Assembly (NCBI GenBank): GCA_030062745.1
Contig: CP099846.1
Coordinates: 27,301,201 to 27,365,200, forward strand
DNA from: Capitulum mitella
Lineage: Eukaryota > Arthropoda > Thecostraca > Pollicipedomorpha > Pollicipedidae
Reading direction: 5' to 3'
DNA length: 64,000 bases
The position numbers were made by a program, and so were the translations under genes. Shown here one piece after another: positions 11,161 through 61,900 of this stretch. The notes under the pieces are model-generated. The model saw only the letters and a program-made list of their open reading frames with translations, was not told the origin of the DNA and ran no database searches. How positions within the stretch are numbered: the first letter of the stretch is position 1; each line of letters starts with the position of its first letter.

Positions 11161-11352
11161 ACCGACTGGCCGCTTCCGCAGCTGGACGGACGGCAGCCTC
11201 CCGGTATCGCGGTTCAGCTCAAGCGCGCTGACCGGTCCGTGACGTCACCGTGACGCGGCGGGGGCGCGGCCGGCCGGCCCGCCGCAGTGTGGCGACGAGG
11301 CCGGCGGAGCGGGCGGTCCCTGCGGCGACTGCGGCGACTGATCTGACGACCA

Positions 11353-11387
<35 letters not shown>
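11160..11387 (+). promoter_or_regulatory. NAGK: NAGK promoter and 5' leader with CRE and GGC repeat
   Basis: A CpG-rich segment directly upstream of the NAGK start codon. A perfect CRE palindrome TGACGTCA lies at 11240-11247, followed closely by a CGTGACGC half-site. A run of about 11 GGC triplets (11354-11387) abuts the ATG and would lie in the 5' leader. No TATA box is seen. There is no ATG anywhere in this stretch, so ribosomes would first meet the NAGK ATG at 11388. The transcription start is not determined. Confidence 0.5.
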
Positions 11388-12413
11388 ATGGCGAAGTCGG
11401 CGAGCGGCGGCGTGTACTTCGTCGGCATCGAGGGCGGCGGCAGCCACTCGGTGGCGTACCTGCTGGACGGCGGCGGCACGCGGCTCGGCACGGCCGACGG
11501 GCCCGGCACCAACCTCTACCTGGAGGGCCTCGACGAGACGGTGGGCCGCTTCAAGCGGCTGGTGGACGCCGTGCTGGCGGCGGCGGGCCTGCCGGCGAAG
11601 ACGACGCTGCGCGGGCTCGGCATCAGCTCGAGCGGCTGCGAGGCGGCCGAGACGGTGCGCGAGCTGCGCGACCGGCTGCTGGCGCTGTACCCGGGGCTCA
11701 CCGAGCACTGCGTCGTCTGCAGCGACACGGCCGGCATCATGGCCACGGCGCTGGAGGGCGGCGGCGTCTGCGTCATCTCGGGCACCGGCTCCAACAGCCT
11801 GCTGCTGAACCCGGACGGCCGCGTGCACCGCTGCGGCGGCTGGTCCTACATGCTAGGCGAGAAGGCCAGCGCCTGGTGGATCGCCTACCGCGCCGTCAAA
11901 TGCATGCTCGAGGAGGACGACCACCTGCGCGTGCCGCCGCACGACTCGGCCGTCATGCGTCGCTGCATCCTCGAGTACTTCGACATCGAGGACCGCTTCG
12001 GCCTGCTCGAGCACGCCTACACGAGCTTTTCGAAGGCTCGCTTCGCCGGCCTGTGCCGGCACCTGGCCGACGCGGCGCATGCGGGCGACCCGCTCTGCCG
12101 GCGGCTGTTCGCCGACGCCGGCCGCTGGATGGGCCGCTTCGTGCTGGCGCTTCTGCCGCGAGTCGACCGCCGCCTGCTGGCCGCCGACGGCGGGCTGCGC
12201 ATCGTCGCCGTCGGCGGCGTCTTCCGCTCCTGGTCGCTGCTGCGCCAGGCGTTCGTCGACGAGCTGGCGCCGCGGCTCGAGACGTTCACGGCGCTCAAGC
12301 TGACCGGCTCGCTGGCGCTCGGCGCCGCCTACCTGGCCGCCAAGGAGGCGCGCTTCGAGCTGCCCCGCGACCTCGGTCGGAACTCGGAGCTGCTCTGCCA
12401 GCGGACCAAGTGA
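11388..12413 (+). CDS. NAGK: N-acetyl-D-glucosamine kinase, single exon
   Basis: Encodes 341 residues, against 344 in human NAGK, and can be aligned to it from end to end. The enzyme phosphorylates GlcNAc to GlcNAc-6-phosphate with ATP in the cytosol, in amino-sugar salvage feeding UDP-GlcNAc and chitin/glycan synthesis. It belongs to the ASKHA (BadF/BadG) fold. Visible motifs are phosphate-1 GIEGGGSHS (13-21), GTN with sugar-binding Asn42, phosphate-2 CSDTAGIMATA with catalytic Asp113, SGTGSN (131-136) and the CGGW block (149-152). The start is the first ATG in frame, with G at -3 and +4. Oddities: no introns, although vertebrate NAGK genes have many, and Glu158 where the family has Asp in GDEGSA(Y/W)W. 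Codon use is extremely GC-rich. The reading frame is intact. Confidence 0.93.
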   Translation: MAKSASGGVYFVGIEGGGSHSVAYLLDGGGTRLGTADGPGTNLYLEGLDETVGRFKRLVDAVLAAAGLPAKTTLRGLGISSSGCEAAETVRELRDRLLALYPGLTEHCVVCSDTAGIMATALEGGGVCVISGTGSNSLLLNPDGRVHRCGGWSYMLGEKASAWWIAYRAVKCMLEEDDHLRVPPHDSAVMRRCILEYFDIEDRFGLLEHAYTSFSKARFAGLCRHLADAAHAGDPLCRRLFADAGRWMGRFVLALLPRVDRRLLAADGGLRIVAVGGVFRSWSLLRQAFVDELAPRLETFTALKLTGSLALGAAYLAAKEARFELPRDLGRNSELLCQRTK

Positions 12414-15371: not shown

Positions 15372-15793
15372 TGAACTGGGGCTTTGGCTGTCGTCCACGG
15401 TCAAAACTTACCTGGACTGTAGCTGTCACTGCAAGCCACAACTCACCTGGGCTGTAGGTATCACTGGAGGAGATAACAACTCACTTAAGCTGTATCTGCC
15501 GTTGGAGGACAGAAGTTACTTGAGCTGAAGCTGCCGTTGAATGGGGTCACAACTCACCTGAATTGCGACTGTTATTGGAGGTCGGAACTAGCTTGGGCCG
15601 TAACTGTTGTCGGAGGTTAGGATTCACCTGAGCTGTCGCTGTTGTCCGACGGCGCCAGAATCCACCTCATCTGTCGCTGTCTCTGAAAGTCAGAACTCAC
15701 CTGCACTGTAGCCGCCACTGAAGGTCAGAACTCACCTGAGATGCAGCTGTTGTTGGACGTCAGAACTCACCTGAGCTGTAGCTGTCGTTGGAG
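15372..15793 (-). repeat. 35-bp x 12 minisatellite built on a splice donor
   Basis: About twelve tandem units of roughly 35 bp. On the minus strand each reads as an exon end plus donor, of the form CTACAGCTCAG then GTGAGTTCTGAC. The unit at 15759-15793 overlaps the 3' end and true donor of the RS-rich exon at 15771-15852, so the array seems to have grown from that junction into the intron. Six units keep GTGAGT, one has GTAAGT and others are diverged. Divergence rises away from the exon: the three units nearest it are the best conserved. Confidence 0.75.
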
Positions 15794-15852
15794 GAGGCGG
15801 ACAGAGATCGGCTGCGGTAGCGGTTCCGGCTCCTGCTGGCCACGCGGGCATC
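15771..15852 (-). CDS. Putative RS-rich internal exon
   Basis: On the minus strand the exon lies between a CAG acceptor and a consensus CAG|GTGAGT donor. It has 27 codons plus one base, reading DARVASRSRNRYRSRSLSAS and ending SNDSYSS. Arg-Ser dipeptides of this kind are typical of SR-type or splicing-associated proteins and other phosphorylated disordered regions, but the protein is not identified. Its donor is the probable founder of the adjacent 35-bp array. Another frame would encode an Ala/Thr/Pro-rich peptide, so the frame choice is inferred. Confidence 0.42.
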
Positions 15853-47740: not shown

Positions 47741-48276
47741 CACAAAATGGTTAATAAGGAAACCGTTTTCCCGAGATGCAATCTGGCATTAATATGCTCT
47801 AATTTGCTTAGTAATAATGACTTAGTTCTGCTTTTCTAGTTTCAGGAAATGCCAAAAAATCAACATCTCTTTGTTATTCTGTGTATTACTACAATGTGCA
47901 TCCCACTAAAGTCTGGTGCATTTGACTGAAAATTGCATATACAAAATGAGTGTGTTACTCTCTAATGTAAAAATGCTGTTCCCTTCCAATGGAGTCAGAG
48001 AAACCTGTGCTCTAATACTGGAGCAGGCAAAATGGCTTATGTTTTAAGGAAACTTAACACCACTTTACCATGTGTAGGATATACGTATATGCATGTGTCC
48101 TGTCATTAATCCCAAGGATGAAACTTTAATATGCTGTGAAGTGGCATGTACCCCCTCCCCCTCCCCCTAAAATTGCATAGTTTTAACATGGGCCTTATCG
48201 GTACTGACTGGAAAGAATGGATTCCAAAATCCTATATGGCCCCTCCATCATTTTCAAAATTTTCATCCTTCATTAA

Positions 48277-49482
48277 CCCTATTCCCGGAGGGCTAGACGG
48301 TATGGTCGATTCCCGGCAGGGGGAGGCGGATTCGCCCCCCCCCCTGAGATCTCGAAAAGTACACATCCGATTTCATCGCAACAAACGGCAATCGATTTAC
48401 CATGACGTGAACTACATTTTTATAAAAAAACAAAATTCTGAAAAGTGTGGATACAGGGGGCAAAAATATCAAAATCAGGGGTATTTTTGGACTTCTTATA
48501 ACGCCGTTGTTTATCGACCGATTTCGATGAAACTGGCATGAATCGATAGGTTATGGATAGGACTTTGACCATTGGTACATACATCTGAAATTTTGAGAAC
48601 ATTCATGGACGTTCACAGGGTTTCAAAAATAGGAGGATTAGTTTTCCAACAACGGAATAAACAAAAAACACAAAAACACTTTTTGGGCTTCTGCTAGTCA
48701 TGTTATGCTAAAGAAATACAAATCGCCATTACAATGTTCGTATAATATTAGCATAGGCGGTGCCACGGACATGAAAAAGGGGAAACTGTAATGGTCACAC
48801 GTTCTTCAGATCAACTTGTGACCTTTGACCTTAAATAACCTCCAGTGATGTTGGAGTCACTTGGAGTGATCTCGTGTGCATTCAATATTATCCATAAATG
48901 TTTTCCATCATTTAAATTCACTCTATTTCAAAAATTTCATGTTATAGCTATTGTGATATAGGGTATGCGCACTGACATTTTAGGTCATAGCTCCGTGACC
49001 CGACCTGATATCACGCTGAAAGTTGATACACAAGTAGAGGGCATCCTTTTACGTCATATATATTCCGGGTTTGGCATTTCAAAAAATGGCACCGAAATTA
49101 CTGCACTAAAACCAAATTTTGACTTTTGACCTTGACCTGACCTTGAAAAGTGACCTAAGATGAACAAAACTGTATCTGCACATTGCCCAACTATTTAGCT
49201 ATTCATCCGCACAAAGTTTTCAGTTCTACCTTAAAAACGCTATTTTTGGCAGATATTTTCCTTTTACCCTCAATATGGCCAAAATTGACCTGAGGTGCCT
49301 CCCAAAAACGTTGCCTGGCTCCGCCCCTGAGCAAAACAGAATTTTGAAATTTCGTCACAGCATGTAGAAAGAATAGCTAGGAAAAGCCACCAAGTTTCGT
49401 GAAGCTACATAAAAAACCCTGGAACTGGCAAGTAAAAAACCTGAGGGGGGTGGATTCAGCCTGCCCCCTGCTGGGAATAGGG
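48277..49482 (+). mobile_element. TTAA MITE copy B (piggyBac-like)
   Basis: CCCTATTCCCGG follows TTAA (48273-48276), and the right end CTGGGAATAGGG at 49471-49482 is followed by CTAT, so the right duplication has decayed. It is 1206 bp and by eye about 90% like copy C in compared blocks. It carries a perfect DR1-type pair TGACCTTTGACCT (48819-48831) and a TGACCTTGA word (49127-49135). No transposase. Confidence 0.88.
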
Positions 49483-53243: not shown

Positions 53244-53609
53244 GGGGCCGACTCGCTCGGCCGTGAGGCCAGCTACTGCCTGAGCCGGCTGGTGCGTGGA
53301 CTGGCGTCGTCGCGGGCCGGCGCGCGCGAGGGCTTCTTCGTGGCGCTGGTGCAGCTGCTGCGCCAGCTGCCGGCCGCCTCGCCGGCGGCGCTGCTGGCGG
53401 CCGCCGCCGCGCAGCTGCCGGACGTGCGCGACGAGCGCCAGGGCACCGAGCACCGGCTCGGCCGGCTGCTGGCGGCGGGCGCGGCCGTGCGCGCCGGCCG
53501 GCTGGACGTCGAGCTGGCGCCGCTCTGCCGCCAGCTGCTGGCCGACTGGGCGCACCGCTCCTACATGCCGCCCGTGGTGGCCAGCTTCGTGGTGGAGCTC
53601 GTGCAGAGG
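53244..53609 (+). CDS. MYBBP1A: MYBBP1A exon (first recognised)
   Basis: 122 codons, phase 0 at both ends, GADSLGREASYCLSRLVRGL onward. Corresponds to the human region around GLGVGRETARPCYSLALAQL, so it is not the true first exon. Donor GTGAGC. Confidence 0.88.
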
Positions 53610-56600
53610 GTGAGCGTGGTGTGCTGGCGGGGGTGAGGGGATGAGAGTTGTCGTGGTTGGAGCGACATGTGTGTGTTTGAACGTGGTGTGTAGAAAACTG
53701 GGCGGAACTTTCATTAAGAATGCTTGGCGTTTCGGGGTGCAAGCTATCTGGCGATAGGTTTCGTCCGCTGAAACATCCTCATAGTCTGGATTACTCGTCC
53801 AAGCTGGTTTTGAATGTTGCACATGAGTACCTTTCTGGCAGCTACGTGAGTAAAGCATGTGTCGTCACCAACCCGTCGTCTGGCGACCCGAGCACTGATT
53901 AGCCCCTCACGAGGCCACGCATGTCTCCGCGCGCGTGACGATCTCGTGACGTCCCTTACCGCGCCTGCCCAGGTGCCGGAGGAAGGGTTCCGGGACGCGG
54001 TGTGGCCGGAACTCCGGCCGCTGCTGGAGCCCGGCTGGGACGGGTGCGTGCCGGAGCGGCTGTGGCTGATGATCGCCTGCCGGCGCCGCTTTCCCGACGT
54101 GTGCGACTCGCGCTTCCTGAAGCAGCACTGGAGCTCCAAGAAGGTGCTCTCGCCCAGGAATCACGAAGGCATCACTGAAATGATCAAGGTGGGTGGAAAT
54201 GGACGTTTGTTTGGGTTGGTTTTCCCTTGTGTCTTTAGGTGCTTCTGTTGTTGAGCTCTGCTCGTATTTTTTTTTTTTAGTGAGTCAACATGGAAGTCAT
54301 TGCATCCTATGCGTGTATTTTTTCTGAGTATCAACCGCCAGTCTGCCAGTAATACCTTGCAATGCGTGCTTGATCCAGATTCCGTTAAAAACTTTGGTGC
54401 CAATCTATCCATTGTTATGCGTTTGGTCCAGGTGGCGGCCAAGAGCCTGCCAGTGATCCACCCGCTGGTGACGTCACTGGTGGCGTTCGCCGTGGAGCGG
54501 CCGCCGGCCGAGATGGTGGAGCTGTACCGCAGCGTGCTGGAGCCGCTGCTGGAGGACCGGGCCACTGCGCTGCTGGTGCTCGCCATGCTGCAGATGGTCG
54601 TGCCCCATCTTACCACGCCGGAAATGGTGAGAACCCATTGTCGGGTATCTGGGACTGACAGTTGCGCTCGTTTCGTTTTTCCGTTCTCTGAGTTGTCTGA
54701 GCGACTGAGCGTGTTAGCTTCATGCCACGGAACAAAGTTCATATGCTGGTGCATGTTCTTGAAATTCCACCGTCGTTGTCCGCGACTGGGGAAATGTTTC
54801 CATGCATGATGAACTGTCGCATTAATCTTCCCCGCAGTCTCCGTGGTGAAATAAGAGTGAAATATGTCCACCACAAAACACGGATGAACAGGTCATAGCA
54901 TGATGTATGTTCGTGTCTTCCCTGTGCGGATTTTTTTCCTTCGTGTATCTAGCGCCTGTTTATAATCTAGGCGTGTGAGTCGTCCCCATGAATGGCGCCT
55001 CAGAAATCACTCGTGCACAGCGCCAGTGTGCACAGCACCGTCCCCGCTTGCGAGGTCCGCAGCAACGTATGACTCCGTCTCTGTATGCCTGGCCAGCTAG
55101 TGGGGATTCCTCCACCATCGTATGGGACTCATTCTTAACGTGTCGTTTCCACTGCGATTTGACTGCAGTCTGACTTCAAAGTTCGGTTCGCGTCATGCAT
55201 GTCTTGGGCGGAGACACCACCACTACTCCGTACCAGTGCCGACTCAGCCGCATGGCTCGCGTGATCCGCCGCTTGATGCCGCCGTTTGACTTCGCTGCGT
55301 GGCTTGACTCCATCGCTTGACTCCTCCTCGTGACTCTGCCGTGCGACTTCGCCGCGCGACTCTGCCGCGCGACTCCGCCGCGTGACTCCGCTGCATGACT
55401 CCTCCGTGTGACTCCGCTGCATGACTCCTCCGCGTGATTCCGCCGTGTGACTCCGCCGCGTGATTCCGTCGTGTGACTCCTCCGTTCCGCCTCAGCGGAC
55501 TCGGCCTTGCGACTCCGCCGCGTGATTGCGCCGCCGGTCGGCAGGTGGAGTCGGTGCTGACGCCGGCGGCGGTCGGCGCGCTGGTCCGCCTGCTGCCCAA
55601 GCGGGACCAGCTGACGGAGCAGGCGGCGCGCGGCCTCGGCTCGGCGCTGGTCAGCCTGCTGCTGACGCCCGACTGCGGCGCCGACACGCAGCTGGCCGTG
55701 CTGGGCCGGCTGGTCTGTCCGCCTGGCTCCGTCAACTTCGACCACATGACAGGTCAGACTGCGGCCAGGGCCGTCAACTTCGACCACATGACAGGTCAGA
55801 CTGCGGCCAGGGCCGTCAACTTCGACCACATGACAGGTCAGACTGCGGCCAGGGTACAGGTCGGGTCACGGTCCGATTACAGGTCAGACCAGGGCCCAGT
55901 ACAGGTTTGAACCGGTAGCGAGGCATGTCAGGGTCTGTCGGCGTTTACGTGTGGTGTATGTGTGTGGTGAGTGATGGATCAGATCGGTGTCTGTCATGGT
56001 ACATTCTGTCGGTTTCTCTGAAAATGTTGGTTTATAGGATTAGCCCGAGCGTGCTGAAATGATCAGTTTTGGGATCAGAGTCTAACGAAATCTTTGATTT
56101 GATTCATTGTTACTATTGTTATTGTTTGTTACTAAATCCAAGGGTATAAATCGTTGGTAATACCGAGAATCATCGGCTACGATTAGAATATTCAGAACTA
56201 CAAACTGTGATGTAAAGAAGTCAGACATAGCCATTGGAGGGTGAAATATTGAGAAACATCATATTCAGAAAGTGTGCGGCGCAAATTACGATTTCAGATT
56301 AATGTTTTTGGTAGGCATGTCTCAAATTTTCCTCACAATATCGGTGGACTTCATTTTCTTTTCTCCAAGCGCCATGGAACATTTTCGACTTTAGATGTTC
56401 CCGTCCGCAGGCACGAAGATCCTGACTCAGATGATCAACGGACTGAAGCCCGAGGCGCTGGAACCGTTCAGTGAGATTGCCATCAGCGCTTTCAGAGGCA
56501 CGCACGCCGACCGGAGCCTGGTAAGTTATCGGGGCTGGCTGTCCAAGGGCTCCCGCGCTTATCCCGGTGTTCGGAGCTGGGCATGGTGTTGGTCACTGCT

Positions 56601-58846
56601 TTAGGTCTTAGTCTGCTAGGAACCGGACCCGCTCTCGCTTATCCAGCCGTACGCTGCCGGTTCATTTACTTCGTCTTTTTATTTCGCCGTCCTCTCTTCC
56701 TGTTTCGTCAAACACATAACTCGCCAGCACCGATCGGCCGAGGCTGGCCCTGCGCGTCCTTCATCACCGCGCTGTCAATCGTGTTTCTCGTCACTGTAAG
56801 TCCAGCGACACTGGAAGCCCAGCCCAGGGGTGCGCCCTCCGTTTGACGCCGCCTGCCGGCCGCCAGACGCCGCGCGGCCGCGCTGTCGCCTGCGACATGC
56901 TATGCCGGCTGGTGCAGCACCCGAGCACGCCCGGCCTGACGCCGCTGAAGCAGCGGCTGCTGCAGATGCTGTTCACGGCCGGCGCCGTCCAGGACGAGGC
57001 CGTGACGGAGGAACTGGCCGCCACCGCGCTCCGCGCCTTCTTCAGGTGAGTGGCCGCCCGCCCGACTGTCCCTTTGTGAGGCGGGTCAGTGGTTAAGCGT
57101 CCTTGTCTCTTTACCGCTGGACGGGGAAGAAAGTTCTTAACATCGTCCCCGGTTCGTCAGTTCATCATCGTTACCGCCAGTTAGTCGCTGGTGGCTGGAT
57201 AAGGGAGGAGGTTCCCCAGAACTGTTGGTGCAGGCAGGAATGGTCTGGTCCCCACGCTGTCATTCATCCGAGTGTGTGCAGGGCTAGATTTACAGAATTA
57301 TTGCTGGCGTGTTTGCGACACCGATGTCTTCACCACGGTGCTGCATTGACAGCGCTAAATGGGTTTCCTGCTGGCCGCCGTGATACAGTCGGGACAGCAA
57401 GGGCTCCTGTCCAAGTGATTGACATGCATTCAGCTGGCGACTGAAAACCTGCGACTGCCGATAAGCATGGTCTTGGCAGCAGCAGGGTGCGAACCGTCGT
57501 CGCCGGGACGTTGGTAAACTCTCTTCCTATCCTCGTGCGATCATCCCCCGCCCCCAGCTCCGCGCCCCCCTCTGACCGCGGCCGCCTCCGGCAGGGCGCT
57601 GGACCACCCCGTGCGGCGTCTCTCGGACCTGACGGCGCTGCTGCGCGCGCTGACCGCACACCAGGACAAGCTGCTCCGCTCTCGGACGGTCGTGCTGCGG
57701 ACGCCGCTGTCGGCCGCCGCTCGGCAAGCCTGGGACCAGGCGGCGGCGGCGCTGCGCCGCCTGGAGGCGGCGGCCGGCCCGGACACGGACGTGTTCGTCA
57801 TCCTGCTGGGCCACCTCAGCCAGCAGCTGTTCGGCGTCGACTGCGACACGGCCATCGATGCGCTGCAGGTGCGGCCCGGGGGGAGGCGATATTGCCGGCT
57901 GGACGAGGCTCACGTTTTTATTGTTTTCTATTTTAATTATTATATTGTTATATGTTGCTTTATTGTACATTATATTTGGATATATTACTATATCATTATG
58001 TAGATATTGTAATGATATAAAATATTATTGCATGTTATATGTTACTTTTCATTTGACGTGCATTAACAAAAAAAGAAAAATGTTGTACTCGAGTGCTACC
58101 TAAATCAAATCAGGTTGATCCAGGGACATTGTCTGTAGTGACTTTATGGTAGATGACCTCTGTGTCATCACCTGTGCGCGTCGTCTTCTTCGATCCGCTC
58201 GTGATTGTGAGTCGGATCTTCCGTTGCAGGAGTTACACACCTGCCTGGAGCGCCAGCAGCGGAAGAGCCGCGGCCGGCGGCGCGCCGGCGACGCCGCCGA
58301 GCCCGACTGGAGCGAGGTGGTGGTCGACCTGCTGCTGTCGCTGCTGTCTCTGAACGTGCATCTACTGCGCAGCGTGGTGCGCTCCGTGTTCACGCTGCTG
58401 GCGCCGACGCTCTCCCGCGAGGCGGTCATGCACGTGTTCCAGGTGCGGAAGGTGGTGGGCGGATCTGGGGAGGCGTCGGGGATGGGTTAGCATAGTGTTA
58501 TATGGGATAGATTTTGAGGAAAAGCAGTGTTTGGGACCATGCTAGGCCTAATCTGGGACCAATGGCGGAGGTAGACGGACGAGGCTGTTGAAGGAATTTA
58601 GGAAAGCATTATGAGTCGATGTGGATTGTTTTTAAAAATGCTACACGGTATCGGCTAGTGGGTTAACTCGTTAACGTTTTTTTCGAAGCCGCTGACTAAT
58701 AACTACTAGATGTTTAGAGGCTGTACTTATTTCTTTTGGGACATGGTATCAACTTGGACAAAGAGGTGTTTTATATTTGTTAAATTAAATTATTAAACAT
58801 TAAATAAATAAAAAAAAAATAAATAATAAGTAATAACAATAACAGT

Positions 58847-58901
<55 letters not shown>

Positions 58902-58931
58902 TTTATATTTATATATTATTATTTTATTTAA

Positions 58932-58971
<40 letters not shown>

Positions 58972-61900
58972 AATATATCATAATAAACAATAAAAAGTAA
59001 TAATAATAAAAATAAATAAATAATTTAAAAAAATGAAATAAAATTAAAATTATTAAAATTATTTGTTAAACGCTGTGACGTTGCGTGTTTGGCCATGACA
59101 TGTACATCCTTAAACGGATGTGTGACGAGAAACCTGAGTAGCCAAGTCACGTGTCGTTTGGATTTCATGGCTGCGTTTCCACGCGCTACCCATGCGATCC
59201 TCATATAATAGCGTTTGTTGGTTCACATGCCGGTTTGGTTTGCAACTTTGATTCGGTCCCAAAAGTTTGTCACCGTTTGGCTCACGCGGCTGTATCGGTC
59301 TATAGTGACAGGAGAAAAGTGGCGTCACTTCGATACTGAACCGTGTCTCTTCTGCCAGTCGTTGGATCCCCAGCACAGCATGAACGGGGAGAATGAAGAC
59401 AGCATTGAAAACGACGAAAGTGAAGACGAGGGCACTGACGAGGAAGAGGAAGACGAAGAGGAATCTGAAGACGGAGAAGGCGGTGAACAAGAAGATGACG
59501 AAAGTGATGTTGAAGACGATGTAGAGGAAACCGAGGACGCTCAAGAGGAGATGGAGACGATGCGTTCGCAAGTGAAGGCAGCTCTGGGAGACGAATCGGA
59601 CGACGCCGTAAGGCGGGGGTCTAGCGTAGTTGGGCTTAGCGTACTGAAAATTGTGGCGTGTCTGCGTATGGTTGTGGTGTGTCTGCGTATTGTCCTTTCA
59701 TTTAGCACTGCTTGGCCGCTGGAATCCTTGCATCTGTCAACATACTTTTGCGTGAATCCGTTGTGCGGTAGTTTTATGCTTGTTTCACTCACTAGCATTG
59801 GATATGATGTTCAAAAAGAGTCAGGCCATTCCTGTCCTCGTCAGATGTCTTTTGAGGTTAAGCTGATCATTACTTGGACCAACCCATCAATCGCTAGACC
59901 ACCAAAGTCGTATTGCTCTTGGTCAGAGCGGTTTAGCCCCGGCAGTGTGGCCGACTCGTCTCGCCACTGTAAGCCGTTTCACCGCCATCCTCTCCCCGGC
60001 AGGCGTCCATCGACATGGACGACGTGCCGGAGGAGCATTTCGCGCGGATGGACGCGGCGCTGGCCGCGGCGTTCCGCGCCATGCGCAAAGATCGCCGCAT
60101 GAAGCGGGGCGGCCGCCAGACGGACGAGGAGCAGGCGTTGATGCATTTCAGGATCAGGTGCGGGGACGTGGGACTGGTGGAATGACGGGGGGAGGGTCGT
60201 GTGGTTGAAGGGAGCGGTAAACTGGTTGGATGATGGGACTGTGTGTATTACGAACGGGAGCGTTGGGTTTTAGAATGGACTGGTGTGGCGTGTCCTGGGA
60301 GTGGTATGCAATGTGGGTCAAGGCGGGTCAGTGAGATCAAGTTTTCGACAGATGTATGCCCCGTTCCAAGGCAGCTTTTCTCATCAGTCACTCGAGTTTC
60401 TGACGCCTTGAGCTCCGTCATGACTTTCCTTGGAAGGATGTTCAAGGCGAACTTTGACTGCACTAAAGTCAGCCGCCTCTCGTATCTAATAGTCGTATCT
60501 CTCGCACCAACGCCGTGTTCGACTCGGTCCGGCAGGGTGCTGGACCTGGCGGACGTGTACGTGCGCGTGTGTCCGCGCGCGCCGGCCACGTTCGACCTGC
60601 TGCCCGTGCTGGTGGCGCAGCTGGCGCGCGCCGCCGCCGACCGGCTGCAGGCGCCGCTGGCCGGCCGCCTGCGCGCCTGCCTGGCGCGCCTGACGGCCGC
60701 CGGCGGCCGCCTGCCGGAGGGTCACGGCCTGACGCCGGGCCTGCTGGCCGAGCTGGTGCAGGAGGTACTGCGCGCCGGCGCCAGACGTGAGTTCCGCGGG
60801 GTGATGAGAGCTCGTCGGTTGAAAGTCGGCCTCTCAGCGGTGCCTCCAGATGACGTGCGGACGCGTAGCCTGGTTATGGCTGGGTTTGAACCTGAGGAAA
60901 ATTTGTGAGGCGCATGTGGCGGATTGTTGTACTGGGAAGCTAATCGGGGTCAGTGCAGCCGAAATTGAACGACGCCGAGGTAGTTTCATACTTGAAGGTT
61001 TTGGTTATTACTAGGCGCATCGTCGTGCATGAACACTCTTGTATTAGGAACCGCCTTGTGATCGCTGTCCAGTCGCAGCAGGACGTTCCGCACCGGCTGA
61101 ACATGTTACTGCCTTGTACGGATCGCGTCATCAGCCTGCCGCCTAACCCGGCGCCGGGTGGCGGCCGCAGTGCCGGCGACCAGCCTGGAGCTGGGCGGCC
61201 TGCTGGCCGCGGCGGTCCGGTTCCTGGTGCGGACCAGCGCCCAGCTGGAGGGGGACCAGACGCCCGTCATCGACGTCCTGCGCGCGGCCCTGGACGCCTT
61301 CTTCACCGACAGGTGGGAGAAGTCGGCCTCCCGCCGGCCGGTGCGCTGAGAGGGACGTCCCCGTGCAGGCCTGAGTGTGATTCAGCTAAAACGGCTCGCC
61401 TCACTGCCCAATTAACCCTATTCCCGGAGGGCTAGACGGTATGGCCGATTCCCGGCAGGGGGGGGGGGGGGATTCGGCCCCCCTGGGATCTCGAGAACTA
61501 CTTATCCGATTTCATCGCAACAAACGGCAATCGATTTGCCATGACGTGAACTACATTTTTATGAAAAGAAATTTTCAAAATTTTAAAATTTGTGGATACA
61601 GGGGGCAAAAATGTCAAAATGGGGGGTACTTTTTGACTTCTTATAACTCCGTTGTTTATGGACCGATTTCGATGAAACTGGCATCAATCGAGAGATTATG
61701 GATAGGGCTTTTACCATGGGCATGCAAATTTGAAATTTTGAGAAAATTCATGGGCGTTCACAGGGTTTCAAAAACAGGGGGATTAGTTTTCCAATAACGG
61801 AATGAACAAAAGAGGCCAAAACACTTTTTTAGCTTCTGCTAGTCATGTTATGCTAAAGAAGTACAAATCGCATTACAATGTTTGTATAATGTTAGCATAG

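What the first reader, a model, noticed from the sequence alone, without database searches (positions are those of the whole stretch)
55731..55856. In-frame triplication of an exon end plus its splice donor in MYBBP1A
A 42-bp unit holding the last 22 bases of the exon, the donor AG|GTCAGA and the start of the intron occurs three times almost without change. All three donors have equal strength on paper. Because 42 is divisible by three, each choice gives a legal protein with 0, 14 or 28 extra residues (repeat VNFDHMTGQTAARA) at the FDHMTG|TKIL junction. Copy number could tune both splicing and protein length, and the near identity suggests it is young and perhaps polymorphic.
Basis: partly seen in the sequence, partly recalled or inferred. 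Interest (0 to 1): 0.72.

Follow-up and report, generated by a model that had tools for sequence, protein, structure and literature searches.

The report
Splice-donor minisatellite in a barnacle-like MYBBP1A
A 42-base piece of DNA that straddles the end of a protein-coding segment, splice signal included, occurs three times in a row in the nucleolar-protein gene MYBBP1A of what is probably a barnacle; it looks like a young local repeat expansion that could give slightly longer proteins but shows no sign of being a built-in control device.

Summary
In detail: window 55729-55854 is three identical 42-bp copies, each with the last 24 bases of a coding exon, the donor CAG|GTCAGA and 18 bases of intron. 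The gene is the MYBBP1A/Pol5 orthologue (PF04931, 340.3 bits, profile 1-765). Donors after 55752, 55794 and 55836 keep the frame (+0, +14, +28 residues). The +0 protein fits the family better than +28 (340.3 against 331.7 bits; +14 not scored), so donor 1 is most likely ancestral. The kind is not unique: a decayed donor-bearing array lies at 15399-15794 (35 bp x11), and the word CAGGTRAGT sits in close pairs 3.5 to 16 times more often per occurrence than three control words. Six of 10 hand-chosen loci have a Pfam match in the upstream exon. Yet 0 of 40 kinase-domain exon ends carry such an array, and unit lengths show no clear preference for multiples of three. The human IFI6 minisatellite is a direct precedent. 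Verdict: real, probably young, probably a neutral passenger with possible isoform noise; no evidence for tuning. RNA is needed.

The parts
55729..55770 (+). Copy 1 of the 42-bp unit: last 24 bases of the exon + 18 bases of intron
55771..55812 (+). Copy 2, identical
55813..55854 (+). Copy 3, identical
55545..55752 (+). MYBBP1A exon up to donor 1 (phase 1 end); the +0, probably ancestral, form
   Evidence: gene model; +0 protein scores better for PF04931 than +28
55753..55758 (+). Donor 1 GTCAGA (exon end 55752)
55795..55800 (+). Donor 2 GTCAGA (exon end 55794), +14 residues, open
55837..55842 (+). Donor 3 GTCAGA (exon end 55836), +28 residues, open
55855..55910 (+). Degenerate continuation: ACAG|GT sites after 55859, 55882 (GTCAGA again) and 55904; all three break the frame
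56411..56520 (+). Next MYBBP1A exon (TKILTQMING...)
53244..60786 (+). Span of the 11 predicted exons of MYBBP1A used for the protein test (exons before and after not modelled)
55305..55534 (+). Another minisatellite (13 bp x 17.9, TGACTCCGCCGCG) in the intron before the same exon, ending 10 bases before it
   Evidence: exon start

Best explanation
A young tandem duplication (minisatellite expansion) that straddles the exon-intron border of a conserved MYBBP1A exon. SHOWN: three identical units, each with the whole donor; an older, decayed 23-bp ACAGGTC repeat continues into the intron; the first donor gives a protein that fits the family better than the third does; donors 2 and 3 also leave an open frame. 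INFERRED: the array arose by slippage or unequal exchange in a repeat-prone intron start and was tolerated because the original donor stayed in place and because each of the three legal choices keeps the frame. INFERRED, and less certain: since the three donors are identical from -24 to +18, U1 cannot tell them apart by their own letters, so more than one is probably used, giving a mixture of +0, +14 and +28 proteins; position, not donor strength, would set the ratio. No step needs selection for the array.
For: Perfect 3 x 42 array; family fit better for +0 (340.3 bits, one stretch over 1-765) than for +28 (331.7 bits, two stretches); frame-breaking sites beyond donor 3; decayed 23-bp substructure; many like repeats in the genome, some at exon ends of other conserved genes; spacings without clear multiple-of-three preference (hand count); even spread of changes over codon positions in the 21-unit VPS9 array. 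Precedent for use of repeat units as donors: IFI6 (PMC4526556, passage).
Against: No RNA was available, so donor use is wholly inferred; splicing could use donor 1 only. L051's in-frame array shows 16 of 26 changes at third positions, as a translated array would, though its copies share a three-unit higher order, so the changes are not independent, and its exon has no Pfam match. No read or population data speak to youth or polymorphism.
Confidence: 0.68

Rival explanations
1. Same origin, but donor 1 alone is used; copies 2 and 3 are plain intron and the protein never changes. (It differs from the best explanation only in donor use, so the two odds overlap.)
For: Donor 1 gives the more family-like protein; in 8 of 12 arrays examined later donors shift the frame or meet stops, so those genes presumably rely on the first donor; 0 of 40 kinase exon ends have such arrays, so no general device is implied.
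Against: Nothing in the letters from -24 to +18 sets donor 1 apart from 2 and 3. It is recalled, not looked up, that with duplicated identical donors the intron-proximal one is often favoured.
Confidence: 0.4
2. A functional length switch: unit number and donor choice tune MYBBP1A.
For: In-frame, open, identical donors; arrays in L048 (VPS9), L051 and L037 (PDZ) are also in frame and open at every later donor counted within 500 bases; L051 has an excess of third-position changes.
Against: Worse family fit of the +28 form; no clear multiple-of-three preference among 33 clusters (hand count); no codon-position bias in L048; array probably young.
Confidence: 0.08
3. Assembly artefact (false extra copies).
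For: Perfect identity; copy number of short arrays can be wrong in assemblies.
Against: 126 bp is far shorter than a long read; if this is the published barnacle assembly or a later one, PacBio reads were used; decayed arrays of the same kind cannot be copying errors of an assembler.
Confidence: 0.06
4. Nascent intron by AGGT tandem duplication (Rogers model): a GT...AG stretch between copies is itself spliced out.
For: Each unit runs GT...ACAG, and fission-yeast genes with 24-bp AGGT repeats have introns across copies (PMC4974935, passages).
Against: A downstream acceptor and conserved exon exist at 56411, so an intron was already there; 42 bases is very short for an intron and the unit shows no pyrimidine tract before its ACAG.
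Confidence: 0.04

Closest known systems
[quoted passage not shown] 1995: title seen in reference lists only; use of repeat units as donors stated in PMC4526556, passage)
   Same: Tandem repeat at an exon end whose units hold a donor, giving transcripts of different exon length
   Different: Other gene and phylum; the IFI6 unit is recalled as about 12 bp with many copies, here 42 bp x3 and perfect; donor use is reported there, not known here
Intron gain by tandem duplication of AGGT-bearing segments (Rogers model; PMC4974935, passages)
   Same: Tandem copies that carry AG|GT
   Different: Here an existing exon-intron border was copied; no new intron is needed or shown
Competing alternative 5' splice sites (e.g. 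DOK7 intron 4, PMC5585400, passages)
   Same: Neighbouring donors compete for U1
   Different: There the two sites differ in strength and are 11 bases apart; here the sites and their flanks are identical copies 42 bases apart

Membership tests
MYBBP1A / Pol5 (PF04931 DNA_pol_phi) | Full-length match to the family profile | tested here: met
   340.3 bits, profile 1-765 of 765, cut-off 27.6; the 4 matches found in the genome at E up to 10 all lie in this gene
Donor-bearing minisatellite (IFI6 kind) | Tandem repeat in which every unit holds a consensus-like donor | tested here: met
Donor-bearing minisatellite (IFI6 kind) | Array starts at a real coding exon end | tested here: met
   gene model and unbroken family match across the junction
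Donor-bearing minisatellite (IFI6 kind) | More than one unit used as donor in RNA | not testable with these tools
   no RNA data
Intron gain by AGGT duplication | The intron arose from the duplication and is bounded by two copies | tested here: not met
   the acceptor before 56411 joins two conserved exons in phase and lies outside the array; related species not examined

The most novel reading that the evidence does not exclude
Donor-straddling minisatellites are a recurrent feature of this genome: exon ends in several conserved genes (MYBBP1A, ALMS-motif, PDZ, FTHFS, VPS9, EGF) carry ladders of repeated donors, some in-frame and open over many units, so that repeat number at exon ends is a widespread, fast-changing source of isoform-length variation or of extra U1 binding at intron starts.
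Probability: 0.15. Interest if true: 0.72.

Novelty: new member of a known kind. Interest (0 to 1): 0.36.

Why it matters
It is a clean natural version of the duplicated-donor experiment: identical competing donors with identical flanks, in frame, so RNA from one animal would show how position alone decides donor choice. If donor arrays at exon ends recur as suggested, this genome offers a set of such experiments at many ages and copy numbers.

Tried and rejected
A strong donor-specific enrichment claim was softened: CAGGTRAGT pairs number 187 against 12 for the word read backwards, but CAGTGRAGT gives 58 and its reverse 85; per single occurrence (6124, 6165, 7602, 9652) this is 3.1%, 0.19%, 0.76%, 0.88%. 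By separate clusters (hand counts) the 100 listed rows, covering about 58% of the genome, hold 33, and all 58 rows hold 35; scaled up and divided by single counts, the donor word is only about twofold above CAGTGRAGT.

CAGGTCAG pairs (5220 against 788) were not used as evidence, because many listed rows are overlapping (AGGTC)n simple repeats. Of 12 such loci fetched, one (L065) looked like a clear exon end by eye and was the only one of the 12 sent to Pfam (EGF). TTTCNCAGG (acceptor-like) pairs show no excess (27 against 33), but the acceptors of this gene are C-rich, so this is a weak control.

A codon model trained on this one gene (805 codons) was weak. It gave a higher coding score upstream on the sense strand than on the antisense strand from the other side in 26 of 31 clusters, top tenth in 16 of 31 against 2 of 31 (31 of the 33 listed clusters, the duplicate L045 and the window's own left out). 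The 8 CAGTGRAGT control clusters gave 3 of 8 sense and 3 of 8 antisense in the same call, so the sense rate alone is not far above the control; and single donors would show a sense bias too. PDB search with a 516-residue part: no match up to E 0.1. In the second window array the donor columns vary less than the rest (0.12 and 0.15 against 0.24), but unit ends were picked by eye. Paper searches for repeats with multiple donors (listings) found the IFI6 precedent and no report of a genome-wide class; three searches are no proof of absence.

Full report
What is there. Window 55729-55854 holds three letter-identical 42-bp units. Each has the last 24 bases of an exon, CAG|GTCAGA and 18 bases of intron (the donor hexamer included in the 18). 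Behind the third unit the intron goes on as a decayed 23-bp ACAGGTC repeat (TRF 55748-55862, 5.4 copies) with three more AG|GT sites. A search with the 211-bp stretch found no second match in the genome.

Gene. Eleven predicted exons at 53244-60786 on the + strand join in phase to an 805-residue protein that matches PF04931 (DNA_pol_phi, the MYBBP1A/Pol5 family) over all 765 positions with 340.3 bits. The 4 PF04931 matches found in the genome lie in this gene. The genome (477 Mb, 16 contigs, first contig 45.5 Mb) resembles that of the stalked barnacle Capitulum mitella as published (16 chromosomes, longest 45.43 Mb, initial assembly 463.09 Mb; passages of PMC8416341). The naming rests on these numbers alone: likely, not proved.

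Which donor. The +0 protein is one unbroken family match; with 28 extra residues the match falls to 331.7 bits and splits in two (the +14 form was not scored). So donor 1 is most likely the original one. Donors 2 and 3 are open; 55859, 55882 and 55904 are not. Predicted local pairing leaves 0.35, 0.37 and 0.20 of donors 1, 2 and 3 unpaired, no strong difference. Sequence therefore gives U1 little reason to prefer one copy. In mammals SRSF1 favours the intron-proximal and hnRNP A1 the intron-distal of competing donors (PMC5585400, passages; in its DOK7 case the preferred proximal site is also the stronger one). It is recalled, not looked up, that with identical donors the intron-proximal one is often favoured, which here would be donor 3. 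I expect a mixture, but this is inference.

Is it one of a kind? No. In the same window, on the minus strand, 15399-15794 is a 35-bp x11 array whose units hold CAG|GTGAGT-like donors and the end of a probable exon; the exon is unproved (coding score only in the top 24%). Genome-wide, CAGGTRAGT pairs 25-55 bases apart occur 187 times; the word read backwards 12 times; the swapped word CAGTGRAGT 58 and its reverse 85. Single counts are 6124, 6165, 7602 and 9652. Per occurrence the donor word is thus 3.5 to 16 times more often in pairs, partly because its arrays are longer; by separate clusters it is about twofold above CAGTGRAGT (hand counts). Of 31 clusters read (of 33 in the listed 100 of 187 rows), 26 have a higher coding score upstream on the sense strand than on the antisense strand from the other side (Wilcoxon p 5e-5); 16 of 31 sense against 2 of 31 antisense are in the top tenth; the 8 control clusters give 3 of 8 and 3 of 8. 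Some of the 31 are two donors in unrelated sequence rather than repeats (L016 and L017, as read).

Exon ends by homology. Ten loci (9 CAGGTRAGT clusters and L065 from the CAGGTCAG set), picked for a promising reading frame, were sent to Pfam; 6 gave a match at E up to 0.01 in the upstream exon: ALMS motif (L006), sterol-sensing (L017, 21.4 bits, below its cut-off of 22.3), PDZ (L037), FTHFS (L046), VPS9 (L048) and EGF (L065); L007, L013, L044 and L051 gave none. Five of the six are real repeats (not L017). Because the loci were picked, 6 of 10 is no rate.

How common, and is it selected? In 40 exon ends taken from the 138 kinase-domain matches without regard to repeats, none has a TRF array over the chosen donor, while the MYBBP1A stretch run as a positive control does; at least five of the 40 donors are doubtful (simple score 5 or less of 9). 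So such arrays are rare per exon. Cluster spacings show no clear preference for multiples of three (13 of 33, hand count). Of 12 arrays read (6 of them, besides MYBBP1A, without Pfam support for the exon), MYBBP1A, L048 (VPS9), L051 and L037 (PDZ) are in frame and open at every later donor at the unit spacing within 500 bases; the other eight shift frame or meet stops at some. In the VPS9 array 21 units differ by 14, 13 and 12 letters at codon positions 1, 2 and 3, as expected of non-coding DNA; L051 differs by 6, 4 and 16, which leans the other way but its copies are not independent; L037 has 1, 1, 3 and L035, whose frame has stops, 8, 6, 2. Taken together the arrays look like passengers, with a lead worth following in L051.

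What is known. A minisatellite whose units serve as donors is known from human IFI6 (title in reference lists; use of two downstream repeat units as donors, PMC4526556 passage; the original paper is not held). The AGGT-duplication model of intron gain (PMC4974935 passages) shares the AG|GT copies but not the outcome. So the MYBBP1A array is a new member of a known kind. A genome-wide class of donor ladders is the boldest reading left open; my searches found no report of one.

Noticed in passing
15399-15794 (-), first exon end at 15771: A 35-bp x11 decayed array whose units hold CAG|GTGAGT-like donors and the end of a probable exon of another gene; donor columns vary a little less than the rest.
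   Followed up: partly
55305-55534: A 13-bp x 18 minisatellite (TGACTCCGCCGCG) ends 10 bases before the same MYBBP1A exon, so the exon has arrays on both sides.
   Followed up: no
L048 (G000:C7:25256268-25261268, minus strand): Exon of a VPS9-domain gene followed by 21 in-register 33-bp units, nearly all GT...CAG, open in frame for 20 units but without codon-position bias.
   Followed up: partly
L051 (G000:C8:725467-730467, minus strand): 13 in-register 30-bp units with donors, open in the presumed frame until the last, with 16 of 26 changes at third codon positions; a candidate for a translated donor ladder, though the exon has no Pfam match.
   Followed up: partly
L044 and L045 (G000:C6 about 6.607 and 6.633 Mb); G000:C1 9097547 and 9148817: Like-looking donor arrays occur twice, 26 kb apart and (inverted) 51 kb apart: segmental duplications or uncollapsed haplotypes.
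   Followed up: no
48140-48541 and 61390-61797: Two similar reading frames (NPIPGGLDGM...SRQG..., HDVNYIF) on the same strand, looking like copies of an interspersed repeat.
   Followed up: no
11232-12410 (+): Long open frame that looks like an N-acetylglucosamine kinase (recalled resemblance, not searched; frame).
   Followed up: no
whole genome: CAGGTCAG pairs are very frequent (5220 against 788 for the reversed word), partly from (AGGTC)n simple repeats.
   Followed up: partly
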